DNA from: Diphasiastrum complanatum
Taxonomy: Eukaryota > Streptophyta > Lycopodiopsida > Lycopodiales > Lycopodiaceae
Assembly: GCA_029204225.1 (NCBI GenBank)
Contig: CM055100.1
Location: 54,061,539 to 54,125,538, forward strand
DNA: 64,000 nt
Reading direction: 5' to 3'
The notes below the pieces were generated by a model. That model ran no database searches. It was given only the letters and a program-made list of their open reading frames with translations, and was not told the DNA's origin. A program made the translations under genes and the position numbers. Positions 1,301 through 62,946 of this stretch are shown piece after piece. Positions within the stretch are counted from its first letter, which is position 1; every line of letters starts with the position of its first letter.

Positions 1301-1468
1301 GCCATATTCAGCTAAGGACATGGAATAGTCCTAATATGGTAGACCGCCCTCCAGTGTTCGAGATTATTGGTCATGCCTAGGCATGTTGGTGACTAATGAC
1401 CTTGAGAGGACCCAGACACTCTAATTGAGACATATGGAGTAGTGCATGTATGTGTGACTGATATAGGC
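1301..1468 (+). repeat. LTR start, gypsy-A-like (copy 2)
   Basis: Second copy of the 1-179 sequence, differing by scattered substitutions and a missing segment near 1378 (CCTAG-ATTTAATTCC in copy 1). It follows the purine tract of the decayed pol end, so it reads as the beginning of a 3' LTR. It stops abruptly at about 1468, where copia-1 sequence begins; copy 1 continues differently from that point (GGCAGGAGG). Confidence 0.55.
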
Positions 1469-1481
1469 TTCAAATTCAAAA

Positions 1482-2350
1482 ATGGCATCAATGGGTGGTT
1501 TTTTGCTTGAAGCTAGTGAAAGACTTACATCCACTAATTATGCTACTTGGATAGTTCGAATGGAGTCTTTGCTTGTACTTCATGATTTTTATGACATAGT
1601 AATTGAGGTGGAAGCAGAACCTCAAGGAGGAGTTGAGTTGGCTAAGTACAAAAAGAGATGTAGAGTTGCATTACATTGCATAAAAATGAATGTAAGTAAT
1701 GAACTTTTGAAAGAAATTTCATCTTGTACCACATCCAAAGAGGCATGGGATTCATTAAAAGCCATTTATGGATCCAAGAACACTTCAAGGATACTCACGC
1801 TTAGGAATGAAATCCTTCAAAGCATGAGAGGAAGTAGTGAAAGTGCCCAAAATTATGTCTTTAGGATCAAATCTTTGAATAAGGAGTTGTCTTCTATAGA
1901 TGATAAAATCAAAGATGATGAATTAGTTCAAATCATTTTGAATGGATTAGGAGATGATTATTCCAATCTTGTTTAAACCTTTGCTATTCAAGATTCACTT
2001 CCTAGTATTGAAAAACTTCAAAGTGTGCTTGTTAGTGAGGAGAGTAGAATGCTTCATATCAAAAGTAGGATGAGTTCCTTATCTTTGAATGATGGTGATG
2101 AAAAAGCTAACTTTTCTTTGAAAGGCAAGAAGAAGAAGTTTCCATCCAAGAAGACTCAAGACATGGAGATGGAGAACAAAGATGGAGCATCAAGTTCCAA
2201 AGGCAAGAGCAAGAAGGACAAGAAGAAGCTAAAATGTTTCTTTTGTGGAAAAAAAGGACATTTTGCATCCGAGTGCTACAAGAAGAAGAATGCCCAAGAG
2301 AAGGACAATCAAGCAATCTTGTGCTTGAGGAGGAGGAAGAAGGCAATCTA
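1482..2350 (+). pseudogene. gag: copia-1 gag (interrupted)
   Basis: Start ATG at 1482. The first 164 codons give a UBN2-type copia Gag (TNYATWIVRMESLL, TSKEAWDSLKAIYGSK) and end at TAA 1974, where copia-2 keeps a glutamine codon, so this is a point-mutation stop. Reading resumes around 1977-2357 with a lysine-rich segment and the zinc knuckle CFFCGKKGHFASEC at about 2240-2281. Gag would package element RNA in cytoplasmic particles. The start codon lies directly after foreign LTR sequence, so the native leader is gone. Confidence 0.8.
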
Positions 2351-2735
2351 TCTTTGATGGTATCCTCACCACAAACATCTAATCAAGACACGTGGTGGAT
2401 TGATAGTGGGGCAAGCTCTCACATGTCTCACCAAAAAGACTACTTTTCTGATCTACTTTCTTACAATAGTTCTAAGAGATTTATCTTCATTGAAAGTGAT
2501 CAAGAATGTGAATTGTAGGTGTTGGATCCATTCCTTTATGTCTAGGATCATCTAAAAAAGTAGATCTAGACAATGTTCTTTATGTACCTTCAATTACAAA
2601 GAACTTGTTGAGTGTAGGACAACTTATGGATAGTGGATTAGATGTACATTTCAAGCATGGAACATGTTCTATCTTGAAAGATAAAAAAATGTATTGCTAG
2701 TAGTTTCAAGCAAGGGAGGTTATTCAAATCGGATG
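2351..2735 (+). pseudogene. copia-1 protease (retropepsin) region
   Basis: The frame beginning before 2355 encodes WWIDSGASSHMS, the copia aspartic protease active site (D-S-G), at about 2393-2430. A stop at 2516 and a frame change interrupt it. The following sequence still encodes the conserved KNLLSVGQ-like motif (about 2600-2620) that precedes the integrase zinc domain. The protease would cleave the Gag-Pol polyprotein. It is not translatable as one piece here. Confidence 0.7.
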
Positions 2736-3890
2736 CTAATGTGATGGTTGGAAGTGTGAACATGGCAAGGGAGGAGCTCACTCAAGTGGAATTATGGCAC
2801 AAAAGGTTAGGCCATCCTAACTACAAAGCTATGGAGACCATGGTGACAAAGGAGCTAGCAAGAGGACTTCCCAAAACCATATCCAAGTGTGGCAAGCTTT
2901 GTGAAGCTTGTGGACTCTCCAAATCTCATAAGCTTCCTTTCAAGAGATCTTTGATAAGATCTAACTCTTCTCTTGACCTTATACACTCGGATGTTCATTC
3001 ATTTTGACATGAATCAAATGGTGGAGCTCTTATGTATGTCACTTTTATTGATGATAAATCAAGATACTCTTGGGCTTGTCTCTTGTCTAAGAAAAGTGAA
3101 GTTTTTGAGTCCTTTGAGAGGTTCAAAACTCTTGTGGAAAAGCAACTTAATACTAGCTTGAAAGGGAGGGGAGTACATCTCCAATAGGATGAAAGAGTTT
3201 TGTGAAACTAATGGCATAAAGAGAGAGTTTACTTGTACATATCCTCCACAACAAAATGGAGTAGCTGAGAGAAAGAATAGGACACTATGTGAGTGTGCTA
3301 AAGCTATGAGATTAGATGCATCTCTTCCTATTTCATTTTGGGGAAAAGCTATTTTATGTGCAAACTTTCTTTGTAATAGAATGACTAATAGTGCCATTAA
3401 AGGACTTACACCTTATGAAGTATTGTTTGGCAAAAAGCCAAATCTTAGTGATTTAAAAGTTTTTGGATGTACCTGTTATGTACATATTCCTTTAGAAACA
3501 AGGAAAAAGGAAGATGCCACTTCTTTCAAAGGCATCTTTGTTGGTTATAGTGAAAGTAAGAAAGCTTATAGGATATATGATCCTATTACAAAAAAAGTTG
3601 TTGCTAGTAGAGATGTACTTTTTGATGAATCTCTCCAAGCCAAAGGAAAGGTGACTTCCAACAACACTCAACTTGTCAAAGATCATGCTATGGCTGAGGA
3701 GGAGCTTCATGAAGATGAAGACCAAGTGGAACCCACTCCAAGTCCAAGGGTGCCAAGAAGATCAACAAGGACAAGGATTGAGCCATCAAGGCTCACTTAT
3801 AGTGACAAAGGGGAGCAAAGGGAAGATTCTCAACTACTCAACTCTTATACTTTCTTGACTACTATGCTTGAAGGACCAACTAGTTTTGAG
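2736..3890 (+). pseudogene. copia-1 integrase (deleted core)
   Basis: The HHCC zinc domain is present at 2741-3000 (LWHKRLGHP ... CEACGLSKSHKLPF). The core begins with DLIHSDVHS, then a stop at 3004 and a frame change. Around 3150-3180 the sequence jumps from the segment ending LNTSLK to YISNRMKEF-like coding. The stretch that carries the second catalytic aspartate (TD.GGE) is missing or scrambled. The glutamate motif PPQQNGVAERKNR is intact at about 3240-3280, and the C-terminal FVGYSESKKAYRIYDP motif at about 3540-3580. The integrase is therefore dead by deletion plus frameshift. Confidence 0.75.
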
Positions 3891-5421
3891 AAAGCAAATA
3901 AGTCTCAATATTGGAGGAAAGCTATGCAAGTAGAGTTTGATGCATTAGTGGAAAATCAAACTTGGAAACTTGTTGATTTACCTTATGGAAAGAAGACTCT
4001 TACTTGTAAATGGATATATAGATTGAAATATAATCAAGATGGTTCCATTCATAAGTACAAAGCTAGACTTGTAGCAAAAGGTTTTTTGCAAGTCAAAGGC
4101 ATAGATTATGATGAAACCTTTGCACCTGTTGCAAATCTTGTGACCATTAGATTAATCATATGTCTTGCAACTTCTGTCAAATGGGAGCTCTTCCAACTTG
4201 ATGTGACAAATGCTTTCTTGAATGGATTCTTGGAAGAGGAAATCTACATGTGCCAACCCAAGGGCTTCATCAAAGATGGAAAAGAAGACAAGGTGTGTCT
4301 CTTGAAGAAGAGTCTTTATGGACTCAAGCAAGCACCAAGAGCATTACTCTAGGTTGCATTCCTATCTTATTTCCATTGGATTTATTGTAAGTTCTTATGA
4401 ACCATCATTGTACTACAAATGTAATGATGGAAAGATCATTATCTTAGTTTTATATGTTGATGACATTATACTCATAGGAAATAATCTAGATGGCATCAAG
4501 AATGTAAAATTTTCCTTGTCTAGTGAATCTAAGATGGTAGATCTAGGACTTCTTAAAGTTATACTTGGAATAGAAGTCACTAGAAGTAATGATTCTACCT
4601 TCATATGTCAATCTAAGTATGCTAGATCAATCTTAGCAAGAATTGGCATGATTGATTGTAAAGGAGTTGAAACTCCTATGGAACTAAGTGTAAAAGTTTC
4701 TAAGGAAAGTGATGAAGCATCCTTTGAGGACATCACTACCTATAGAATGCTTATTGGCTCCTTGATATACTTAACCATCACTAGACCAGATCTTAGTTTT
4801 TGTGTTGGCAAGTTGAGTCAATACATGCAAAGTCCATTAATATGTCATTGGAAAGGAGCAAAAAGGGTGTTAAGGTACATCTCGGCTACAAAAGACTTTG
4901 GCATAGTTTATGAAAGGACTAATATCTGTTTGAGAGCATATTCGGACTCAAGTTTTGTAGGTGACAAGATGGATAGAAGATTTATAAGTGCATTTGCTAC
5001 ATTCTTATGTGGAGGAGCTATATCTTGGCTTTCCAAAAAACAAGATACCGTCTCTCTTTCATCAACAGAATCTGAATATAAAGCTATGACAACAACAACA
5101 AAGGAGGTTCTTTGGCTTAAAAGGCTTTTGGAGGAGCTACATGTGATCAAGGATGAAGACATTCCATGCATATATTGTGATACTCAAGCAGCTCAACAAC
5201 TTGCAAACAATCCAGTCTTCCGTGCTCGAACAAAGCACATCGAGATTGCACATCATTTCGTGAGAGAGAAAGTGCAAGCAAAGGAGATCAAGCTTATTCA
5301 TGTTTCATCATTAGATTGCATTGCTGATATACTCACCAAGGCATTGCTTAAAGATCCATTTATAAAATTAAGATTGGCTCTTGGAGTTATAGATAGATCT
5401 ATGCTAGATTTAGCAAGCTAG
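3890..5421 (+). pseudogene. copia-1 reverse transcriptase and RNase H
   Basis: RT fingers and palm read from 3900: LVAKGFLQVKGIDYDETF and LFQLDVTNAFLNG (first catalytic Asp). A small deletion near 4340, after SLYGLKQAPRA, shifts the frame. The second frame continues with LYVDDIIL (about 4450-4480), retaining the YVDD pair, and runs to TAG at 5419. RNase H motifs AYSDSSFVGD and STESEYKAM (about 4935-5090) and KHIEIAHHFVREKV (about 5235) are present. This is the best preserved part of copia-1. One frameshift separates it from the upstream half. Confidence 0.8.
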
Positions 5422-14804: not shown

Positions 14805-15580
14805 TTCACCATTCGAGATGGATTACTATTTCGGAATGGAAAAGTTTGCGTACCTGGTGATGATGAGCTCAAACGTAAGATTTTGTTTGAATGTCATGAC
14901 ATACCCTGTGCAGGACATCTCGATATACACAGGACTCTGGACTTGGTAAAGAGGGAATTTTATTGGCCAAAGCTCAAGCCATATGTCGAGTCATATGTTA
15001 TTAAATGCAAACCCTGTCAACTAGCAAAGGCTGAATGCCATAAGGCTGGTGGTTTGTTGCATCCGTTAGATATCCCAAGTAAGAAATGGGAAAGCATATC
15101 TATGGATTTTGTAGTTGGAATTCCAAAGACCCAACGACAAAATGATTCTATTTGGGTTGTAGTGGATCGGTTAACTAGGTTAGGTGCATTCATACCAGTC
15201 AAGTCAACTATAAAGGCTTCTGATTTAGCCCAGATCTTTGTTGAAAGATTATTTCGGTTGTATGGTCTGCCAAGTGACATTGTTAGTGATAGAGATCCTA
15301 AGTTCACAGGTCACTTTTGGTCAGCAGTTTTCCATAAACTTGAAAGTTCTTTGAGTTTAAGTTCTTCTGATCATCCTGAATTAGATGGCCAGACAGAAAG
15401 GACTAATTAAACTATGAAAGATATTTTGAGGACGTATGTTTCACACATGCAATCTCATTGGGAAGATTATCTACCACTGGTTGAGTTTGCATATAATAGT
15501 AGAGAAAATTCTGCTACAGGTTATAGTGATCTCCAGTAAATGTTGAGACAAAGTCTGTTAAGATCCAGAAGGTTGCTGAT
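14805..15580 (+). pseudogene. gypsy-A integrase core
   Basis: The HHCC zinc domain reads ECHDIPCAGHLDIHRT ... CKPCQLAK (about 14890-15030). The core has SMDFVVGIPKTQ (D), then IVSDRDPKFTGHFW (D) and DHPELDGQTERTN (E), all within the open stretch 14883-15410. A TAA at 15408 follows, with further damage to 15580. It would insert element cDNA in the nucleus. All three DDE residues are visible, but the protein is cut. Confidence 0.8.
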
Positions 15581-16113
15581 TTTTTGCATGATATGCAAGA
15601 AATGTTGCAAGTGGCTAAGGATAGTATCCGAGTGCTCAAGATAGAGCTAAACACTATACCGATCTTAAGAGATCTCCAAGAGATTTTAAAATTGATGATT
15701 GGGTATATCTTAGGATTCCAAAAAATTCTAAGACATTACATACATGGAAGCATTATAAGATGTCTACCTGTTATTGTGGACCTTTCAAGATTGTACATAG
15801 AATTGGTTCTTTGGCGTATGAACTTGATTTTCAAGGAAAATCGACTGCACACCCAGTGTTTCATGTAAGTCATTTGAAACTAAGTTTACATGATGGTGAT
15901 ACAGTTGGATCGGATGAGGATTTATCCCATTTGGAAGATTCATCGCTTAGTGTACCTTTGGAACCTGAGAAAGTGCTCAGAACCAGAGATAAACAATTGA
16001 GAAATCATTCTATATTTGAGTGCTTAATTCGGTGGAAGGGTCATACTAAGGATGATGATTTGTGGGAGAGAGTTGATAGCATAAAGAAGAACTTCTCGTA
16101 TTTTAGTTTCTAA
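15581..16113 (+). pseudogene. gypsy-A integrase C-terminus with chromodomain-like end
   Basis: The open stretch 15760-16113 carries YCGPFKIVHRIGSLAYEL, HPVFHVSHLKLS, and a chromodomain-like tail KVLRTRDKQLRNHSIFE then CLIRWKGHTKDDDLWE. Chromodomains on plant gypsy integrases bind modified histones and direct insertion into heterochromatin. Upstream, 15584-15760 is frameshifted. The tail stops at 16111-16113, 15 bases before the purine tract. Confidence 0.7.
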
Positions 16114-16128
16114 GGATAGAAACAGTTT

Positions 16129-16140
16129 AAGGAGAGAAGA
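16129..16140 (+). promoter_or_regulatory. gypsy-A polypurine tract
   Basis: AAGGAGAGAAGA directly precedes the 3' LTR start TGTTATGTCCAT at 16142. Position and composition fit the plus-strand priming site of an LTR retrotransposon. The decayed relative at about 1290 has AAGGGAGGAAGAA in the same place. Confidence 0.65.
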
Positions 16141-16141
16141 A

Positions 16142-16153
16142 TGTTATGTCCAT
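16142..16153 (+). repeat. gypsy-A 3' LTR, first 12 bases
   Basis: TGTTATGTCCAT begins the 3' LTR. It is interrupted by copia-2 and resumes at 21639. The reversed LTR at 32708 reads the same across the insertion point (TGTTATGTCCATGGCC), which confirms that the two pieces were once joined. Confidence 0.75.
16149..16153 (+). repeat. copia-2 target-site duplication, left
   Basis: TCCAT, identical to 21634-21638 on the other side of copia-2. A 5-base duplication is standard for copia integrase. In the uninterrupted gypsy-A LTR only one TCCAT is present. Confidence 0.9.
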
Positions 16154-16806
16154 TGTGAGAGATTTCAACTAGTTTAGTCTAGTTTAGTCACATTATGGTA
16201 AGTTGTCAATAAGAGGCCAAAACTCATTTTAGACTTAGAAATAAACTTTTTGAAGTGATATTAGTTTAAAATACATTCAATAAACACTTTTTGAAAGTGT
16301 GGGAAAGTTGGTAGTTGATTTTGAGAGAGATTCAAATTTGAACCTTGGGTACATTGAATCTCGACCCAAAACTAGTAGGGTTTACATTTCGGAGGGAAAG
16401 CCAAGTGGCCAAATAGGGTTTGGAAACTCTATAAAAGGATTAACTCATGGAGAGACACATCTTCTCTCTTCTCTCTCTCATTTCATCATTATACATGGTT
16501 CCCTTTGGGTTCTACTACTCATTGGTGCACTCTCTTGGTGATATCTTGCAATCTTGTGTGTAGAAGGCTCATATTTTGTTATTTTCGGTTCCACATGTGT
16601 GAAATACAGTAGGGTACTGTATTTGTATGGACAACAAACATATTTTATGTTTTGGTTCATGTTTGATCAAGTTCTCTTAGAGTTTGCATCTCATTTTGTA
16701 TGTAGATGCTGATTTTTCTACGTTGGCAGGATTGTTGGTTTGCTCCTTATTGTAACCAAAGATCAGGGACATGGATTGGATCTTGAATGATCTGAAATCC
16801 TTCACA
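16154..16806 (+). repeat. copia-2 5' LTR (653 bp)
   Basis: Starts TGTGAGAGATTTC and ends AATCCTTCACA, TG...CA as usual. The 3' LTR has identical ends and length. A TATA box TATAAAAG lies at 16430-16437 with CTCTCTTCTCTCTCTC downstream, a likely U3/R promoter. The TATA sequence is TATAGAAG in the 3' LTR. Confidence 0.95.
16430..16437 (+). promoter_or_regulatory. copia-2 LTR TATA box
   Basis: TATAAAAG in the middle of the LTR, preceded by GGAAACTC and followed about 25 bases on by a pyrimidine-rich stretch suitable for transcription start. It would drive the full-length element RNA. The position is normal for plant copia LTRs. Confidence 0.6.
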
Positions 16807-16820
16807 TGGTATCAGAGCTA
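16807..16820 (+). promoter_or_regulatory. copia-2 primer-binding site (tRNA-iMet)
   Basis: TGGTATCAGAGCTA abuts the LTR end with no spacer. TGGTATCAGAGC is complementary to the 3' end of plant initiator methionine tRNA, the usual primer for copia reverse transcription. Confidence 0.9.
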
Positions 16821-17408
16821 TTGTGTTTCAGGTTATGAAAGGATCAGCCATCTTTAGCAATGATTTGGAGGAGTTACTAATGCTAGAGCATGCTAGATTG
16901 ATTTCTACTCAAAAATCAGCATTTTTGCATGTGTAGAATTGATCTTTTGTAGGTCAAAACTCATTATAGGGTTATATACTTGATCAATTCCAATTTCACA
17001 CCTGGTTTACTGGAATTAGATGAATTTTGGTGCATTAGGAAGGTCTCATTGGAGTCTACAAGAAGATATATCAAGTTTCTAGAAATTGCGTGTAGAATTT
17101 GAGATATTCAATTTTTTGTGATTTTGTCAAAACCCTAATTTTAATTGGATCTCTAGTTTGTGAGGTTACTAAAATTCATTTGAGTGTGTTTCAATATTAG
17201 AAAGTGGCAAGAATCATTAGATTGCGGATAGATCATAGGTTGATCAAGATTTCACTATTCTATGTGTTGATTTTCTAGTTAGAAGTGCTAGAAGATATTT
17301 GAGAGGTTCCATATCTTTGTGATTTCTTCTTGAGTTCATTTGTTGACATTCAAGAGAGTTCTTTGTGCATTGGAATAGGTTGAAAGAAGAAGATCAGGTC
17401 ACTTCAAC
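16821..17408 (+). other. copia-2 5' leader
   Basis: 588 bases between the PBS and the start codon, without a long frame. It is the expected location of packaging signals. No further structure was recognised. Confidence 0.7.
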
Positions 17409-20300
17409 ATGGCTACAAGTGGAGGCTTTATGTTGGAGAGCAATGATAGACTTACCTCAATCAACTATTTTACTTGGAAGGTGAGGATGGAGTCCTTATT
17501 GGAGATGAATGAGTTGATGGAGATTGTTGCAGGTGTGGAGGAGAGGCCCCAAGCACCTCAAGATCAAATGAGGTATAATAAGAGGGCCAAAAGGACTCTA
17601 CACATGATAAAGATGAATGTTATCAATGAGCTTCTCAAGGAAGTTGGTAAGTGCACATCATCTTTGGAGGCTTGGAAAGCTTTGAAGAAGCTTTATGAAT
17701 CCAAGTCTACATCAAGAGTGCTTACTCTAAGGAGGCAAATCTTTCAAAGTTTGCAAAAGAAGGAAGAGAGTACTCATGCTTTTGTTTTGAGGGTTAAGGC
17801 ATTCAATGATGAGTTAGCATGTATTGATGAAAGCATTAAGGAGGTAGAACTTGTTCAAGTTATACTTTATGGCTTGTTGGATGATCATGCTAATCTTGTT
17901 CAAAGTTTTGCTATTCAAAAGACTTTGCCAAGTATTGTGGATTTGCAAGAGATCTTGGTGAATGAGGAGTATAGGCTTCAATCAAGAGGAGGTGGATCTA
18001 CATCGACATCTCAATATGAAGAGGAGGCTATGTTCATCAAAGGCAAGTTCAAGGGAAAAGGCAAAGGCAAGTGGTCTAAAGGGCAACATCAAGGTGAGAC
18101 TTCTTCTTTTGGCAAAAATAAAGATACGTCAAAGGTAAAATGCTTTTATTGTGGAAACAAAGGGCATTTTGCAAATGAATGTTTGAAGAAGCAAAGAGAT
18201 GAAGGTAGCAAGCAAATCAACTTTACTACTAATGATGAGGATCTAGGTGGTGGTGGTTCTCTTTTGATGAGTTCTTCAAGTCCAATATCAAGTGAAGGTG
18301 ACAAAGATTCATGGTGGATTGATAGTGGAGCTAGTTCACACATGACTAGTCACAAGGAGTTCTTTACTTCTTTGGTCACTTATGATGGAGCCAAGAAAGC
18401 AATTCACATGGCCAATGGTGGTGAGTGTGTGATCGAAGGTATCGGTTCAATTTCTATTTGTCTCTCTACTTATAGGAAAGCAAGACTTGATGGTTTTCTT
18501 TACATTCCTTCACTTTCAAAGAATTTGCTAAGTGTTGGTCAAATGATAGAGAAAGGATACATGGTAAAGTTTGGTGGTGATGCTTGTTTCATTACAAAGG
18601 AAGAAATCTTGGTTGCTAGGGGCAATAGACAAGGTAGACTTTTCAAGCTTGATGCTTTTGTTATAGCTAACAAAAAGGATGGAATGGAAAAGGCAATTGG
18701 TCTCAAATTTTCAAAGTTACCTTTTAGCATCAATAAGATTGGCGGATCTTATGCAAAGTCTAAAAAGCTTTCTTATGTTAGATCTAGGTCAAGATCTAAT
18801 ATGCTTCTTGGAGATGTTCATCTTTGTGCTAACTTGGATAGTCTTGAGGATATTGATGGTGTTTCAATGGTTCTTCATGGCAAGTGCAAGCACACAAAAG
18901 GTAAGGAAAGAGCTAACTTCATCAATGGAGGTGAAGGTTCTTCCTTGGAAAAGATTGTTGTTAATGATTTCTTTGATCATATGTCAAAAGATGTTGCTAG
19001 GTGCATTCATGAAGGAGGTGGTTCTTCTACATTCTTTTGTGATGAGTCCAAGAAGGTCATTTTTCCAACAAGTGGAGTCACATTTATTCATAAAGTGAGT
19101 AGATCAAATGGTTCTATCAAGAGACTTGGTGAGGGAGATAGTCACAAGTCAAGGAGAAGAGAAGTATGTGAAGAGTTCAAAGTAGGATGTACTTTGAATG
19201 ATGTCATTGTGAATGATAGTGAGGAAGAATCATTATCATATGATTCATTACCTAAAACATTGAGTAGAAGTTCTTGTTTGAAAAAAAAGAGTACTTCAAT
19301 CATCCTTATGTTGAAGGTACTAATCATTTTTTTCATGGCTTCTAGTGTCTTTGAGGTGTCTACTTCTTATGATGCAATCATTAAGAGGGAGTCTTATGAA
19401 GGAAAGAGCAATGGAAGATTGGTTCTTGGGAAGATCCAAGGCATGGATCTCACATCTCTTCATCAACTCAAAGGATTCTATGGTTGTGAATTGATCACTC
19501 ATAATCAAGATGGCAATAGGTTGGTTGGAGAAGACTACATGGAGCAAATCGAGAGGCAATTTCTTCAAGGCAAGGGAGATATCATTGGTGAGCTTATTGA
19601 GGTTTGTTATGAACTCAAGAAGGCTGGATTTATTAGGTTTGATACTCATCTTCACCTACTCTACTTCATGTTGGATGGAAAGTTTGGAATCTATCTTTGG
19701 ATTTATGATGGTGACATTGGTGACATTGTTTTCACTAACCTTTGTAGAAATTTGAGATCAAGCAATGATGAGTTCTTGTTGGATCTAGATCATATGTTTG
19801 AGAGAGAGTATTTCCAGAGGTTCAGGTATGAAGATATTCATATCTTTGATATCTTTGATGATCAAGAGAAAGGTAAGCAAGTGGAAGTGACTCGCTTTGC
19901 TTCACTCACATGTTTTGGAGATTCTTCTTGTGTAGATGATGTTGTGCAAGTAGATGGATGTCTTCATGATTTTACAACAAGTAATGGATCTGAAAAACAA
20001 AGTCTGTTCAATGACTTTGATGGTCAAGAGGAAGATCAAGAGGTTGGTCTCAAAGGTCTTCAACAACACAAAAGGAAAGGTGGCAATTTGGAGCTAGTCA
20101 AGAGCATGAAAGGAACGTTATTTGGCAAAGATGTTATGGATCTATTTTTGCAGCTTATTGAAGACTCAAGTAAGGTCAAAGGAGAAACAAGGAAGTGTTG
20201 TTCAAGTTTACTTTACTTGTTCTATCTCATGTTTGAGCTATTTCATGTGGAAGTGTGCAAATTGTCAAGATATGGACAAACTAGCTACATTGTCTTGTAA
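17409..20300 (+). CDS. gag: copia-2 Gag-protease fused to a novel 540-residue region
   Basis: 963 codons without interruption; the start ATG 17409 (TCAACATGGCT) aligns with copia-1 Gag. Residues 1-230 are UBN2-type Gag. The zinc knuckle CFYCGNKGHFANEC is at 245-258. The aspartic protease WWIDSGASSHM is at 302-312, followed by the usual copia segment with KNLLSVGQM to about 420. The normal next motif, LWHKRLGH of integrase, is absent. Residues 421-963 match no family I recognise: a basic Ser/Arg stretch (450-463), a hydrophobic run at 631-648, acidic segments, and a second hydrophobic run at 933-948. Faint RT/RNase H-like strings occur at 710-713 (YMEQ), 756-770 and 833-844, lacking the YVDD pair. 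Gag-PR could still be made and packaged. The role of the rest is unknown. Confidence 0.9.
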   Translation: MATSGGFMLESNDRLTSINYFTWKVRMESLLEMNELMEIVAGVEERPQAPQDQMRYNKRAKRTLHMIKMNVINELLKEVGKCTSSLEAWKALKKLYESKSTSRVLTLRRQIFQSLQKKEESTHAFVLRVKAFNDELACIDESIKEVELVQVILYGLLDDHANLVQSFAIQKTLPSIVDLQEILVNEEYRLQSRGGGSTSTSQYEEEAMFIKGKFKGKGKGKWSKGQHQGETSSFGKNKDTSKVKCFYCGNKGHFANECLKKQRDEGSKQINFTTNDEDLGGGGSLLMSSSSPISSEGDKDSWWIDSGASSHMTSHKEFFTSLVTYDGAKKAIHMANGGECVIEGIGSISICLSTYRKARLDGFLYIPSLSKNLLSVGQMIEKGYMVKFGGDACFITKEEILVARGNRQGRLFKLDAFVIANKKDGMEKAIGLKFSKLPFSINKIGGSYAKSKKLSYVRSRSRSNMLLGDVHLCANLDSLEDIDGVSMVLHGKCKHTKGKERANFINGGEGSSLEKIVVNDFFDHMSKDVARCIHEGGGSSTFFCDESKKVIFPTSGVTFIHKVSRSNGSIKRLGEGDSHKSRRREVCEEFKVGCTLNDVIVNDSEEESLSYDSLPKTLSRSSCLKKKSTSIILMLKVLIIFFMASSVFEVSTSYDAIIKRESYEGKSNGRLVLGKIQGMDLTSLHQLKGFYGCELITHNQDGNRLVGEDYMEQIERQFLQGKGDIIGELIEVCYELKKAGFIRFDTHLHLLYFMLDGKFGIYLWIYDGDIGDIVFTNLCRNLRSSNDEFLLDLDHMFEREYFQRFRYEDIHIFDIFDDQEKGKQVEVTRFASLTCFGDSSCVDDVVQVDGCLHDFTTSNGSEKQSLFNDFDGQEEDQEVGLKGLQQHKRKGGNLELVKSMKGTLFGKDVMDLFLQLIEDSSKVKGETRKCCSSLLYLFYLMFELFHVEVCKLSRYGQTSYIVL

Positions 20301-20980
20301 TATCTTATTGTTGGAGTTGTACTAGCATTCTTGGCTGGTTTTGCTGATGGAAATGAAGCTATTGGAGGTTCATTATGTCACTCATCCATGGCTAAGTTCT
20401 CAAGTGTTGAGCTACTTGGTGCCAATGTTTGGAGATTGTAATTTTTGGTGAATTCATGATCATTTTCTTGTGTCAAGTAGATCTTGAAGATGGACTAGTG
20501 CAACCTACTTGGTTTATGGAGTCATGTGGTGCTGGATTTGCATCATTTATGTACTCACCTACTCATGGATTTCCAAGGTTTGATGGTTTCTTGTGGCAAG
20601 ATGGATATTGAGGCTCATTCATGGAGTTTTATGGTGGAGACATATCAAGAAAGGACAAAGTTGGAGGAAAAAGCAAGCAAATGGTCATCATTCACATTTA
20701 TTGTTTGGTTGCTGTAATTTTCCAGAGAGTTCAAAGTTTGAAACATGGAGGAATCATTTCATTCACATTCTATTTGGTTCTTCATATTCTAGTTATATCT
20801 TGATGTGTAAAATTGATGTAAGAGATAGTGAAGCATCCAATTTGGACACTATTCTCTATATCAATTATGAAAGATACTTTAGAATCTTAGAAAGGAGATC
20901 TATACTTAGAATGGAGATCATTCTAAAGTTGGATCAAAGTTCTATTGTCAAAACTATGCCAAAACTAGTTGAAGAGGGAG
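20301..20980 (+). other. copia-2 3' internal region and purine tract
   Basis: About 680 bases after the stop, with several overlapping short frames. The longest (20593-20985) ends exactly at the purine tract GAAGAGGGAG (20971-20980) and would encode MPKLVEEGV there. Copia pol often ends just before the purine tract, so this may be the remnant of the pol 3' end. No domain is recognisable. Confidence 0.5.
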
Positions 20981-21633
20981 TGTGAGAGATTTCAACTAGT
21001 TTAGTCTAGTTTAGTCACATTTTGGTAAATTGTCAATAAGAGGCCAAAACTCATTTTAGACTTAGAGATAAACTTTTTGAAGTGATGTTAGTTTAAAATA
21101 CATTCAATAAACACTTTTTGAAAGTGTGGGAAAGTTGGTAGTCGATTTTGAGAGAGATTCAAATTTGAACCTTGGGTACATTGAATCTAGACCCAAAACT
21201 AGTAGGGTTTACATTTTGGAGGGAAAGCCAGGTGGCCAAATAGGGTTTGGAAACTCTATAGAAGGATGTAACTCGTGGAGAGACACATATTCTCTCTTCT
21301 CTCTCTCATTTCATCATTATACATGGTTCCCTTTGGGTTCTACTACTCATTGGTGCACTCTCTTGGTGATATCTTGCAATCTTGCGTGTAGAAGGCTCAT
21401 ATTTTGTTATTTTCGGTTCCACATGTGTGAAATATAGTAGGGTACTGTAATTGTATGGACAGCAAACATATTTTATGTTTTGGTTATGTTTGATCAAGTT
21501 CTCTTAGAGTTTGCATCTCATTTTGTATGTAGATGCTGATTTTTCTACGTTGGCAGGATTGTTGGTTTGCTCCCTATTGTAACCAAAGATCAGGGACATG
21601 GATTGGATCTTGAATGATCTGAAATCCTTCACA
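20981..21633 (+). repeat. copia-2 3' LTR (653 bp)
   Basis: Starts TGTGAGAGATTTC directly after GAAGAGGGAG and ends AATCCTTCACA. It aligns end to end with the 5' LTR; differences include TATAAAAG to TATAGAAG and two single-base indels that cancel in length. Confidence 0.95.
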
Positions 21634-21638
21634 TCCAT
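21634..21638 (+). repeat. copia-2 target-site duplication, right
   Basis: TCCAT, a perfect copy of 16149-16153. Confidence 0.9.
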
Positions 21639-21800
21639 GACCAGTACATAGGATATAGTATACTCCTAGTCTTGGATACACGGTACTCCAGTGAAACAAG
21701 CTATTAGTTTGCCACGCCATACTGGATGTGACCCAAAAGTAACTAATATCCTTGTGAGGCCCAGAACACACTAAATGGAGTTTAGACAAGGTATGAGATA
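21639..21800 (+). repeat. gypsy-A 3' LTR, continued
   Basis: GACCAGTACATAGGATATAG onward matches the reversed gypsy-A LTR at 32708-32540, continuing exactly where the 12-base piece before copia-2 stops. It ends near GTATGAGAT at about 21800, where gypsy-B sequence begins, so most of this LTR is missing. Confidence 0.75.
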
Positions 21801-23360
21801 TCTCTTGCCAAGATTGCGGTTATGGACATTGTTTCAAGAATTGTCCATTTAAACCTGGAACCAGTGCACCTCTTAACCTCATTGTCAAACAACAATCAAC
21901 AGTTCTAGCAGGTTTGCCAACGAAAGGTCGACACGACTACGCTCCTGTGTTAGCTGTTACGCGAGCACAGAAGAGGGAGGAAGTGTCTCCCTCACCACCA
22001 CCATCGGTCACTAACGACCAACCCTCAACTTTAGCGCCATATCCAAATGGGAGGGAAGAGAAAAGACAGTACCAGAAAATAAGACACTGCGTACAAAAAG
22101 CACAAGAGGAGAAAAAAGAGCAAGAACGAAACAATCCCACAGAACCTCCAGTCGGCGTCGAATGGGATCTACAAACAGGCTCACCACTGTGCATTGATCA
22201 GAATGATCGGTTGCACCAACATGAACCGCCTTTTCACATGGTGGAGCCTGAGGAACCACGCACTGACAGGCTCACACTCTTGCTGTCAAGCCACTTTAGT
22301 TTACCCCTCGGAGAACTACTGCGGATTGCACCATAAGCGAAAAGCCTTTTAGCTGAATGGGCCAAGGCGGATGAAGAGCCAATAGCGCCTAAGCCCATCT
22401 ATTGTGCGGGCTATGATGAAACAAGTAACGTCCTCCACATCGAAGCAGCATGGGAAAGTGAGGAACACAACATCACTTTGCCAATCAAACACAAGAGATA
22501 TGAGGATGAGGCGGCAGTGGTAGATGGAGGATCGGGTGTCAATCTGATCTCCACTACTTTGTACGAAAAATGGGGATTACAAGGATTGAAGCCAACTAGA
22601 TTCACTATCAAGTTAGGAGATCAATCCTGTGTGAAACCAAAAGGTGTAGTTGCTGATATTCCCGTAAAGATAGCAGGCATCCAATATGTGATTACTTTTG
22701 TGGTCATGGATATATCTGAATCTCCATCTGCATACCGTATTTTACTGGGAAGACCATGGTTGAGGGCTGCGCAAGTAGTACACAACTGGGGTATAGGGAA
22801 ACTCACCTTCGAGAACAGAGAACAGGCTATAAAGGTAGATCCAACCACATGGGCGGTAAAACCTATTGCACCTAAAGCTGATGATGGATCATCCACTAAG
22901 GAGATTGAGCTGACTGATGAACAAGTCTTACACCACATGGACCCAGATCATTACGGAACCAAGAAGGTACTAGCTCAACCACCACAAAGGTCTGCTATGG
23001 CGAAAGTCTCAAAGATTGAACCACCCAACGCACCTACGAATAAGAAGAATCAGTTGAAGCAACACTACAACCAGGTGATCCGATGGAGTGACCTATCCGA
23101 AGAGGCAATAGCTACAGTAGACGTTGATATTCGCAACCATGAGGCGAATGTCACAGCAGTCCCAATGAAAGACAACAAGGATGAACCCATCAAAATGACA
23201 AAAAAGAGCAAGAAGAAGGTGTTGGATTCCTTGAAGTCAATCAAGTTGGACTCAGATACAGTGTCATCTTCTACACAGGTGACAGAAAATAAAAAAAATG
23301 ACCAGTCGGGCCAAGATCAATATGCTGAAAGAGGAATTTCGAAGAGCTCCAGTTCATGAG
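21801..23360 (+). pseudogene. gypsy-B gag end and protease
   Basis: The beginning matches the end of the reversed gag at 35480-35100: CGYGHC.KNCPFKP, then SAPLNLIV. One in-frame TAA at 22334-22336 separates two stretches in the same frame. The protease active site reads VVDGGSGVNLIS (DGG in place of D[ST]G) at about 22517-22552, with the flap/end motif ILLGRPWLRAA. The frame changes near an A8 run at 23290-23297, probably a slippage indel, before RT. Confidence 0.75.
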
Positions 23361-32095: not shown

Positions 32096-32708
32096 CAAAG
32101 AATCCCAAGAGTAATGGATCTTAGCAACATGCAAATTGAAACTGGGATAGTACACCCACTTGCACCCTTGCTATCCACCTTGGAAGAGAATTCCATTGAT
32201 CCAATCCAAAATTTCGACGAAAGGTAGCCCTTCTCCATGTTCTCCACACTATGGAGCAACCACCCAACCAAGTAGAAGCAACCAATCAACTCTAGAAACT
32301 TCACCCCCAAGCCAAGGAATAAGAAGCATGAAGGTAGACTGAAACCCTGGCAATGAATCAATGATCACAATGAGTAGGGCGAGTTTGGCCTCAATATATA
32401 GAGCCAAAAGCAACCTGGGCACATAGTCATGCATAGCCCTAAGCTCCCTATACATAGATTCACCTAGAATAGAGTCCTAAGCATGGACCAACTATTCGTA
32501 GAATTGCTATTGATAACTCTATACATGCATACACTATCTCATACCTTGTCTAAACTCCATTTAGTGTGTTCTGGGCTCACAAGGATATTAGTTACTTTCG
32601 AGTCACATCCAGTATGATGTGGCATAACTAACAGCTTGATTTACTAGAGTACCGTGTATCCAAGACTAGGAATATATTGAATCCTACTTACTGGCCATGG
32701 ACATAACA
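32096..32708 (-). repeat. Reversed gypsy-A LTR (most complete copy)
   Basis: On the minus strand it begins TGTTATGTCCATGGCC at 32708 and contains the GACTCGAAAGTAACTAATA block and the TATA-like CTCTATATATTGAGG (32404-32390). It gives the uninterrupted version of the LTR that copia-2 splits. The exact LTR/leader border between about 32390 and 32096 is not fixed, because no clear PBS was found. Confidence 0.7.
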
Positions 32709-61073: not shown

Positions 61074-62174
61074 TTATTCATCTGCGTATTTGGTTTTAAT
61101 GAAGAGATCGTAAGGAGCCCACAAACTGTCAATGGGGCAAGGATGACCAGAGTCCAGCCTCAACCAGGGTTTACCCTTGCCACTCCAATGCAACAGGCTA
61201 ACAGGTCCTGGATGCAAATGCCGGCAGCTGCCCATGGCGTTATCTCCACCCAAACCGTGCTGATTCCATCTATGCTCAATGGGCTCCACAAATCCAGCAA
61301 ACACCAACAAGAAAGGAGGCAATGAGCCAAGCTCATATATTCGCTTCTCCTTCTGAATCTCCATCCACATCTCAATTCTTCTTGTATAGTTTTGCTGCCG
61401 CCATTTTGTAAGATCAATGACCATCACGCCGGTGTTGAAATAGCAAGCAATTCTTGTTTCAAAGGTGCTGGCTAGAGTAGAGTTAGACCAAAACGAGGGA
61501 GTAAAGTACTTTGTGAAATTAACATGGCAATATTCTGGAGCTCCAAGAGTGTGAGATCCTAGGCTGGTGCCCCAAAGCTTTGCAATGTCATCCACCACGA
61601 TCAGGTCAGAATCGAGATAGATTACCCTTTGGATGCAGGTCTCTAAAATTTCTGCCAAGTAACTACGAGCATAATTTAGAGGCTGTTCTAAGTCTTGCCG
61701 CACGGATGCCGATATCAAATCCTTCACCAATTTTACATCAAAGTAATATACTTTGAATCGTAGATAGGGAAACGTGTTTCGCAGTAGGGTTTTGAGCTCG
61801 ACGTCCCCGTGGGACACCAGGAAATGAAAGATCAGATTTTCGGGGCAGTCTGAATGCTGAACAATGGATAGAATGGCAGCCATCGATCCCCGCAAGTAGA
61901 CTGCATCCAGAGTCATGGCGATATGCACCGCAGTAGCATCGCAAACAGACTCGGCTTCGCTCTTGTCCACACTGCTCGGCAGGCAGTGGATTCCATTGCG
62001 AAATGCAGGGGCTTCTTGGAACAAAGCTGGCCCAGTAGGAACTTTATGGGTGGCAAATAAATCCTCGTGCGCTCTTATAGCTTCAACAGGAACATATAAT
62101 TTGATCAACGGAAGAAGAATCAGTGAAACCCATGAAGCATAAAACACAGGCTCCAAATTTCCAGACCATCTCAT
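61074..62174 (-). CDS. GATL: Galacturonosyltransferase-like protein (GATL, GT8 family)
   Basis: Single exon, 366 residues from ATG 62174 (MRWSGNLEP) to the stop at 61074. An in-frame ATG lies 35 codons upstream (62279), but GATL proteins usually begin MRW/MLW-like followed directly by a hydrophobic anchor, seen here as [15 protein letters not shown] (residues 10-24). The GT8 nucleotide-sugar and Mn site [11 protein letters not shown] is at 186-196, [17 protein letters not shown] at about 210-226, and the family end motif [11 protein letters not shown] at 327-337. Length and motifs match plant GATLs, Golgi proteins tied to pectin or xylan synthesis in the cell wall. No stops or frameshifts, the only intact host gene here. 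The precise substrate is not predictable from sequence. Confidence 0.9.
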
Positions 62175-62946
62175 GATTTTTTCACCGCCAGAGAACAATG
62201 AATTTAAAAGCTCCAATATCGCAACAAAAGCTGGAACTCCTGAGCGAAAATTCTTAACCCCGAACAACCTCTGTTGCAATCTGCTTCAATGTCTGACACT
62301 AAATCTATGAAACCAAGTATTTGACGCACGAAACGTTTATACCGACTCCCCTGCTGATTATAATTAGCAAACGTGTGCTGATTAGATTTCAGCAAAGTGA
62401 TCACAGTTTATTAACTTAGGTAGTGAAAACGATACCGGAGGCCAAAGTCTTGTATCAATTGACAAATGAATTACACGATAATGGCTTTCTTTTCTAATCT
62501 AACTCGCTCACCGATCGCTCTCATCCACGTTTTGATGACAAGCTTCACGCTATCTCATCAATCAAGTCGCTGTGAATCAAGCACTCCCAAAAAAAACATC
62601 CCAGAAATACGAAGGCAACTTGAGAATGCAGAAATTACAGCATTGAATTTTTGAACACTACTTAGTTCCTACCAGGAGGAGGACTGATTGATTTACAAGG
62701 AAATGTGTGACTGCAAGATAAAACCAATCCTGCTTGACTTCAACACACGGAGCACAGCAACACAACAACGCGTGAAATTTTGCAGCGAAGCCACCATGAA
62801 CGTGACTGAGTCACTCTCAGCATGTACATAGGTTGTATGGCTGTTGTGGATGGGGTGGAAAAGACGAGGGGAGCCTAGAGGAGTAAAAAAAAAAAAACCA
62901 AACGTTCGTGTCCCATCCCATCTCTTCTGTCTTCTTTCTCCTTCCT

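What the first reader, a model, noticed from the sequence alone, without database searches (positions are those of the whole stretch)
16154..21633. Complete, fairly recent copia element with Gag-protease joined to an unknown 540-residue region instead of pol
Both 653-bp LTRs, PBS, purine tract and a perfect TSD are present, and the 963-codon frame has no stops while every neighbouring element is riddled with them. After Gag, zinc knuckle and protease, integrase and RT are not recognisable. Non-autonomous plant LTR elements usually have no coding or only Gag. One that kept Gag-PR and a further long open region suggests that the extra protein is, or was, under selection.
Basis: partly seen in the sequence, partly recalled or inferred. 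Interest (0 to 1): 0.88.

Follow-up and report, generated by a model that had tools for sequence, protein, structure and literature searches.

The report
Gag-protease retrotransposon with decayed, open pol
It is one copy of a very abundant plant jumping-gene family that makes its own coat protein and protease but carries, where the copying enzymes should be, a worn-out yet still uninterrupted remnant of them, so it probably borrows working enzymes from relatives.

Summary
The element is real: two 653-bp LTRs, TCCAT duplication, PBS, purine tract, 963-codon frame. The extra region belongs to a high-copy family: 40 of 40 scored places match essentially its whole length. The window's stop is private: 15 of 15 other independent copies have a sense codon there and 14 of 15 read on; 4 of 80 rows are open over 1203 codons, stop to stop. 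The "unknown protein" is largely decayed pol in its original frame: codons 705-799 match the copia reverse-transcriptase core (hhalign E 1.2e-5; 0 of 100 decoys as good), with YVDD changed to YDGD, Gly in 37 of 37 rows. The integrase part is suggestive, the last part (X') probable. Gag-PR is under purifying selection; the decayed region shows little or none at the amino-acid level, although its frame stayed open. RT-bearing relatives exist, and so do recombinants carrying part of the region. Best reading: a semi-autonomous copia family that supplies Gag-PR and borrows RT and integrase (borrowing inferred). The open but unconstrained pseudo-pol is the new part.

The parts
16149..16153 (.). target site duplication TCCAT (left); right copy at 21634-21638
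16154..16806 (+). 5' LTR, 653 nt, TGTGAG...TTCACA
16807..16818 (+). primer binding site TGGTATCAGAGC (initiator-Met type; type recalled)
17409..20300 (+). open frame of 963 codons in this copy, Gag-PR plus decayed pol; its stop is private to this copy
17409..18668 (+). Gag (Retrotran_gag_2, residues 27-193), CCHC zinc knuckle (18141-18182), aspartic protease Pol_BBD with DSGAS at 18321; under purifying selection
18711..19904 (+). X1: decayed pol in frame; similarity to relatives' pol stops being obvious after about codon 433
18759..18797 (+). integrase-like stretch SKKLSYVRSRSRS, cf. SKSHRLPYTRSISRS of L029 (suggestive only)
19521..19805 (+). decayed reverse-transcriptase core (codons 705-799): DYMEQ, YxLKxA, YDGD at 19704-19715
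19905..20959 (+). X': segment also found in place of RT in L029, L030 and L033; probably a second decayed RT
20301..20438 (+). same frame open for 46 more codons after the private stop, hydrophobic start
20593..20985 (+). 130-aa ORF in another frame: last part of the family frame after a 2-nt length change in this copy; runs through the purine tract to a TGA formed at the LTR start
20971..20980 (+). polypurine tract GAAGAGGGAG
20981..21633 (+). 3' LTR, 653 nt

Best explanation
This is one copy of a high-copy, semi-autonomous Ty1/copia family. Shown: it keeps Gag and protease under purifying selection; its reverse transcriptase is a remnant with a broken YVDD (YDGD), and no integrase is recognisable; copies sit at different sites with their own 5-bp duplications, so the family moved. 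Inferred: it makes its own Gag-PR particles, packages its own RNA, and borrows RT, RNase H and integrase from RT-bearing relatives. Shown: the remains of pol drifted far in sequence but stayed in one open frame, which in other copies runs to the 3' LTR like an autonomous polyprotein. Inferred: what is kept is openness (translation to near the 3' end) rather than a particular protein, for instance because an early stop would leave a very long 3' UTR and expose the RNA to nonsense-mediated decay. Parts of the region were exchanged between families, probably by template switching at short matching sequences.
For: Family: 40 of 40 scored places (6310 first-look candidates) cover positions 1-4 to 1632 of the region at 94-100%; 80 of 80 scored at protein level (16440 candidates; list ranked by score, which favours unbroken copies), 56 of 80 without a stop inside. 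20 fetched copies plus the window represent 16 independent insertions; of the 8 with two full LTRs recognised, 6 have perfect own TSDs, LTR K2P 0.014-0.039. RT: X-family alignment vs a 36-sequence copia RT profile E 1.2e-5, score 42.8, best of 100 column-shuffled decoys 27.4; Gly for the first Asp of YVDD in 37 of 37 rows (32 after near-identical rows are dropped), YGLK in 27 of 37. X' has the place and length of RT in L033 (891 vs 890 nt in L034). RT-bearing relatives: L034 has RT after integrase; 104 RT places scored, 4 open over 1325 codons stop to stop. Recombination: L030 joins window-type Gag-PR to L029-type integrase at ACAAAAAGGATGG; L029 and L033 switch from RT start into X' at ACAT; the window's right end fits, but for one base, a deletion between two CTATGCTA repeats seen in L033. 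Selection: NG86 ratio Gag-PR 0.48 (CI 0.36-0.66; wrong frames 0.74, 0.90) vs X 0.79 (0.61-1.07; wrong frames 0.76, 0.76), bootstrap P 0.007 for the difference. Openness: in 32 copies X has N/S at 0.95 of neutral but 10 stops of 481 changes where 24.2 are expected (P 0.001); wrong frames 25 vs 31.0 and 40 vs 36.3. Tail lengths from codon 964 to the LTR: 683 nt in 8 copies, 509 in 3, 875 in 1 (differences 174 and 192, multiples of three); 2 nt short in the window and L016; end not found in L021 and L027.
Against: Most variation among copies is post-insertion and says little on selection; the stop deficit is also present among singletons (7 vs 16.9), which selection before insertion cannot fully explain, and Gag-PR shows no stop deficit (11 vs 11.9). 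Singleton versus shared N:S in X differed at p 0.052 with 16 copies but not with 32 (p 0.35). Integrase homology is not significant by profile (E 0.021; 1 of 60 decoys as good) and X1 shows no diagonal word enrichment with IN. X' vs RT fails by profile (E 0.67); DNA local tests gave p 0.002 (L033), 0.043 (L029), 0.084 (window), but that test is poorly calibrated: of 8 controls 5 fell below 0.05 and Gag vs RT scored 0.0003. X' against the window's other copia RT gave only z 1.9. No RT-bearing element with LTRs as close as the family's own was found; the other LTR types read are 79% (L033) and 86% (L024) like the window's. No expression data.
Confidence: 0.8

Rival explanations
1. The decayed pol acquired a new protein role (for example a structural Gag extension or regulator) and is under weak amino-acid selection.
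For: X1 codon states shared by at least 2 of 32 copies give 0.57 (CI 0.36-0.91) vs wrong frames 0.82 and 0.75; coding-like three-base periodicity in two of three X1 parts beyond an open-frame null; two hydrophobic stretches; open frames in many copies.
Against: Confidence intervals overlap the wrong frames; X' shows none (1.02; 1.0-3.2 against L029 and L030, no wrong-frame control there); overall N/S neutral (0.95). Periodicity is also expected of former pol.
Confidence: 0.2
2. A foreign or host gene was captured in place of pol (Bs1-like), an extra protein.
For: No match in 5.8 billion proteins at E <= 1, none in PDB, no Pfam family above cut-off; joints with microhomology; X' moves as a block between families.
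Against: RT core found by profile with decoys, in pol order and frame; a captured plant gene should have plant homologues and none was found.
Confidence: 0.08
3. Plain decay: pol was lost recently and the open frame is a leftover that has not had time to break.
For: Neutral N/S; LTR K2P only 0.014-0.039; private stops and frameshifts in many copies; intact over the extra region in 16 of 32 (an undercount because of alignment ends).
Against: The RT remnant is only about 31% identical over 89 columns to the related RT, while the Gag-PR lineages differ by dS about 0.67. At LTR-derived rates (10 indels per 117 substitutions in the 8 independent LTR pairs; 5% stops) that much drift in X1 would bring some 20 stops and 30 indels on one branch (my estimate), yet several copies have an unbroken frame.
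Confidence: 0.15

Closest known systems
RLG_Sabrina_SA and RLG_WHAM of wheat (PMC9744471, passages read)
   Same: High-copy 'semi-autonomous' families that encode only GAG and protease; RLG_Wilma proposed as autonomous partner.
   Different: Gypsy; the passages say RT and INT are absent, not present as an open decayed frame. Here Copia, one frame through decayed RT.
RLG_Quinta / RLG_Cereba of wheat (PMC11302176, passages read)
   Same: Non-autonomous GAG plus a domain of unknown function; partner with same PBS and LTR ends; recombination by template switching proposed.
   Different: Gypsy, centromeric, no protease mentioned for Quinta in the passages; its DUF1 is of unknown function, perhaps acquired later. 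Here the 'unknown' part could be traced to pol.
TR-GAG elements, e.g. AT5TE33540 of ATCOPIA63 (PMC8704663, passages read)
   Same: Non-autonomous copia with one ORF; new insertion detected there.
   Different: ORF of 562 aa for GAG; no protease or pol remnant described in the passages seen.
Pol-less Athila families (PMC2410132, passages read)
   Same: Non-autonomous copies keep ORFs under purifying selection and recombine with distant families.
   Different: Gag and Env kept, pol lacking rather than decayed in frame (that Athila is gypsy-type is recalled).
Bs1 of maize (PMC13317346 passages; PMC7264820 parts 1-2 of 3)
   Same: LTR element with a chimeric ORF.
   Different: Extra parts are host gene segments; here they are pol-derived.

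Membership tests
Ty1/copia LTR retrotransposon | LTRs, PBS, PPT, short TSD | tested here: met
Ty1/copia LTR retrotransposon | copia-type Gag and Pol_BBD protease | tested here: met
Ty1/copia LTR retrotransposon | functional pol in the order PR-IN-RT-RH (needed for an autonomous member) | tested here: not met
   no IN/RT by Pfam; RT core only as remnant; the order is seen piecewise in relatives L029, L033, L034. The element is therefore filed as a non-autonomous derivative
Semi-autonomous (GAG-Pro) element | Gag-PR kept under purifying selection without RT/IN | tested here: met
Semi-autonomous (GAG-Pro) element | autonomous partner with matching PBS, LTR ends, PPT | tested here: inconclusive
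   L033 shares purine tract, pol end and a 79% similar LTR; an RT place on C2 lies about 360 nt before an LTR 89% like that of L024; PBS of an RT-bearing element was not read and no direct partner identified
Bs1-like gene capture | captured host gene segment | tested here: not met
   no homologue; RT profile match
env-like additional ORF | separate sense ORF after pol with transmembrane segment | tested here: not met
   region lies in place of pol, same frame; hydrophobic stretches present

The most novel reading that the evidence does not exclude
Selection keeps the frame open without caring for the protein: a retrotransposon RNA is favoured if ribosomes can run from Gag to the 3' LTR, so dead pol is carried as an open, freely drifting tail (shield against nonsense-mediated decay, or spacing for RNA packaging). 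Domains of unknown function in other non-autonomous plant elements may be such pseudo-pol.
Probability: 0.4. Interest if true: 0.75.

Novelty: new variant of a known kind. Interest (0 to 1): 0.5.

Why it matters
Abundant non-autonomous plant elements often carry 'unknown' domains. Here one is traced to decayed reverse transcriptase by comparing many copies, where single-sequence searches of very large databases failed. If the frame is indeed kept open without amino-acid constraint, it is a natural test of how translation and RNA decay shape mobile-element RNAs, and a warning that a long open frame need not mean a working protein.

Tried and rejected
Protein searches of the extra region, as region of the whole ORF and alone: none at E <= 1. 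Pfam, PHROGs, NCBIfam, PDB: nothing above cut-off beyond the protease (weak sub-cut-off hits such as I-HmuI_NUMOD-like were ignored). Viral contigs: none. AlphaFold2 on the single sequence: mean pLDDT 31.8, useless, so no fold search. A protein-kinase reading by eye (note) found no support in Pfam or PDB and turned out to be the RT core. The hypothesis that X is an env-like ORF from downstream of pol (note) was dropped when L033 and L034 were read. Inversion of RT: reverse complement of X' no better than shuffles. HMMs of IN, RT and RH against X rows and 500 decoys were inconclusive: 2 to 48 decoys as good for IN, 1 to 12 for RT, no RH hit in 5 of 8 rows. Global alignments: DNA X1 vs IN z 4.3, X' vs RT+RH z 3.3, controls 1.0-2.7 (which used a wrong reading frame for the X1 protein); X1 core vs IN core z 3.7 in DNA, 2.7 in protein, where X1 vs RT scored 2.5 and vs Gag 1.9. 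A neutral-decay simulation of the 963-codon frame gave 1-2% intact, but this copy does carry a private stop at 964.

Full report
1. Observation. The element at 16154-21633 is as described: LTRs of 653 nt each, TSD TCCAT, PBS, purine tract, and a 963-codon frame from 17409 to 20300. LTR K2P is 0.025. Pfam recognises Gag, a zinc knuckle and the protease, and nothing above cut-off after residue 384. The extra region has coding-like three-base periodicity in most of its parts, weakest in codons 561-690 and at the end.

2. Single-sequence searches failed. No homologue at E <= 1 in two protein searches restricted to the region. The whole ORF found 45 proteins with copia-type Pfam domains, matching at most 48% of the query. 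No PDB hit, no PHROGs or NCBIfam hit, a useless fold model.

3. The host genome. The window lies in a 1.745-Gb assembly, unnamed here. DNA of the extra region gave 6310 first-look candidates; the 40 scored all cover it from position 1-4 to the end at 94-100%. The protein gave 16440 candidates, 80 scored, all covering residues 1 or 2 to 543; 56 of 80 have no stop inside, and 4 of 80 are uninterrupted over 1203 codons stop to stop; these 4 have the same score and may be duplicates of each other. The list is ranked by score, which favours unbroken copies, and first-look numbers are not copy numbers. I fetched 20 copies in full: with the window they represent 16 independent insertions, since L009, L012, L020, L022 and L025 share flanks with others. 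Of the 8 independent insertions in which two full LTRs were recognised, 6 have perfect own TSDs (window, L010, L011, L013, L017, L023; not L016 and L028); K2P 0.014-0.039.

4. The frame is longer in the family. At codon 964 all 15 other independent copies have a sense codon. In 14 of 15 the frame goes on for 30 codons or more (L021 runs into other sequence), in 8 of 15 through all 134 codons looked at. L023 is open to a TGA made where the LTR begins, ending KLVEEVV in that copy. The relative L033 ends its RNase H with KLVEEGV at its LTR. From codon 964 to the LTR the length is 683 nt in 8 copies, 509 in 3 and 875 in 1, differences of 174 and 192 that keep the frame; the window and L016 are 2 nt short; in L021 and L027 the end was not found. 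In the window the continuation is therefore split by the private stop and a length change; the ORF 20593-20985 is its last part.

5. Relatives with pol. Copy L024 carries LTRs only 86% like the window's. Probing with that LTR led to L029-L032. L031 and L032 are the window type, 94-95%. L029 has Gag-PR (77% DNA identity), an integrase region (with one stop, and a frameshift upstream) and the first 30 or so residues of RT, then directly X' (window from about 19905); L030 is a hybrid with window-type Gag-PR joined out of frame to L029-type integrase. Integrase DNA of L029 is itself abundant: 40 of 40 scored at 98% or more. Two downstream pieces of such elements were read: L034 goes on into RT and part of RNase H; L033 has X' between RT start and RT end/RNase H. 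RT protein of L034: 162707 candidates, 104 scored, 4 of 104 open over 1325 codons stop to stop without a stop. One RT place (C2) lies about 360 nt before an LTR 89% like L024's.

6. What the extra region is. X' in L033 has the place and length of RT in L034 (891 and 890 nt). DNA alignment of X' with RT exceeds shuffles (z 5.05, 4.98, 3.3 with RNase H added); controls ranged from -0.9 to 1.9 (not counting X1 vs the window's other integrase, 3.2, a likely homologue) and 1.0 to 2.7. Short-word matches are enriched on the main diagonal: above the highest other band in 7 of 9 settings (e.g. 65 vs mean 33, highest other 60). A local test is weaker: p 0.002 for L033, 0.043 for L029, 0.084 for the window, and its controls are not clean (5 of 8 below 0.05, Gag vs RT 0.0003). 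Profile comparison finds nothing (E 0.67). So I call X' only probably RT-derived. For X1 the evidence is firm in its second half: the family alignment of codons 636-833 matches a copia RT profile at E 1.2e-5 over 89 columns, 31% identity; none of 100 column-shuffled decoys came near (42.8 vs 27.4). The matched line contains YMEQ, YGLK in 27 of 37 rows and L(L)IYDGDI against LLIYVDDI; Gly stands for the first Asp of YVDD in 37 of 37 rows. The integrase stretch is suggestive only (E 0.021, 1 of 60 decoys as good; no diagonal enrichment). That YVDD and YGLK are RT motifs is recalled knowledge; the aligned RT is L034's.

7. Selection. Across 16 copies the NG86 ratio is 0.48 for Gag-PR (CI 0.36-0.66; wrong frames 0.74 and 0.90), 0.71 for X1 (0.53-1.0; 0.81 and 0.71) and 1.05 for X' (0.62-2.2; 0.63 and 1.01). 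With only states shared by two or more copies: Gag-PR 0.31, X1 0.52 (0.29-1.03), X' 1.08. In 32 of 37 copies (five dropped as near-identical): X1 0.66 (0.50-0.89; wrong frames 0.86, 0.68), with shared states 0.57 (0.36-0.91; 0.82, 0.75); X' 0.89 and 1.02. Between L029 and 9 other copies Gag-PR gives 0.27-0.33 at dS 0.61-0.70, X' 1.2-2.5 at dS 0.02-0.13, so X' was exchanged later than the lineages split. Against a spectrum from the non-coding parts, Gag-PR shared changes are at 0.38 of neutral (p 0.004) and X shared changes at 0.73 (p 0.22) in 16 copies. X in 32 copies has N/S at 0.95 of neutral but 10 stops where 24.2 are expected (P 0.001), while the wrong frames fit (25 vs 31.0, 40 vs 36.3). 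Against this: the deficit also holds for singletons (7 vs 16.9), and Gag-PR shows none (11 vs 11.9). So openness is favoured by the data but not proven; amino-acid constraint is weak (X1) or undetected (X').

8. Mechanism. Supported: mobile family, constrained Gag-PR, RT remnant without YVDD, RT-bearing relatives with shared purine tract and pol end. Inferred: supply of RT and integrase in trans, and template switching as the source of the hybrids (short matches at the joints: ACAT, CTATGCTA, ACAAAAAGGATGG). The reason for openness is inferred; decay of RNAs with long 3' UTRs in plants is described in PMC6277124 (passages read), but nothing here measures it.

9. Known kinds. Wheat Sabrina_SA and WHAM and Quinta are the nearest in lifestyle; TR-GAG and Athila are next. 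Ten literature searches (one search found none) listed no paper whose title or shown start of abstract describes an in-frame decayed pol kept open in a Gag-PR element; this covers only the open library and only what the listings show.

Noticed in passing
window 15469-22200 vs G000:C9:53918372-53925103 (L009): The element and its flanks recur inverted about 150 kb away at 99.94% over the 6732 nt fetched, with the same TSD: a recent inverted segmental duplication or an assembly artefact.
   Followed up: partly
window 1308-5421: A second, broken copia element with Gag, protease, integrase and RT/RNase H pieces; its Gag is 48% identical to this element's.
   Followed up: partly
window 16140-16153 and 21634-21800: The element sits in or next to the start of the 3' LTR of an older gypsy-type element (chromodomain-like end at 15760-16113 by eye, untested); 21634-21800 recurs inverted at 32535-32701, 90%.
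   Followed up: no
window 61074-62279 (-): 401-aa ORF that looks by eye like a plant galacturonosyltransferase-like (GATL) gene; name recalled, not tested.
   Followed up: no
L015: Besides the 5'-truncated copy, a stretch 66% identical to the Gag part lies nearby in the opposite orientation: another copia relative.
   Followed up: no
L011, L014, L015, L033: L011, L014 and L015 have tails 174 nt (58 codons) shorter than most copies, apparently at the place where L033 of the other lineage is also shorter.
   Followed up: partly
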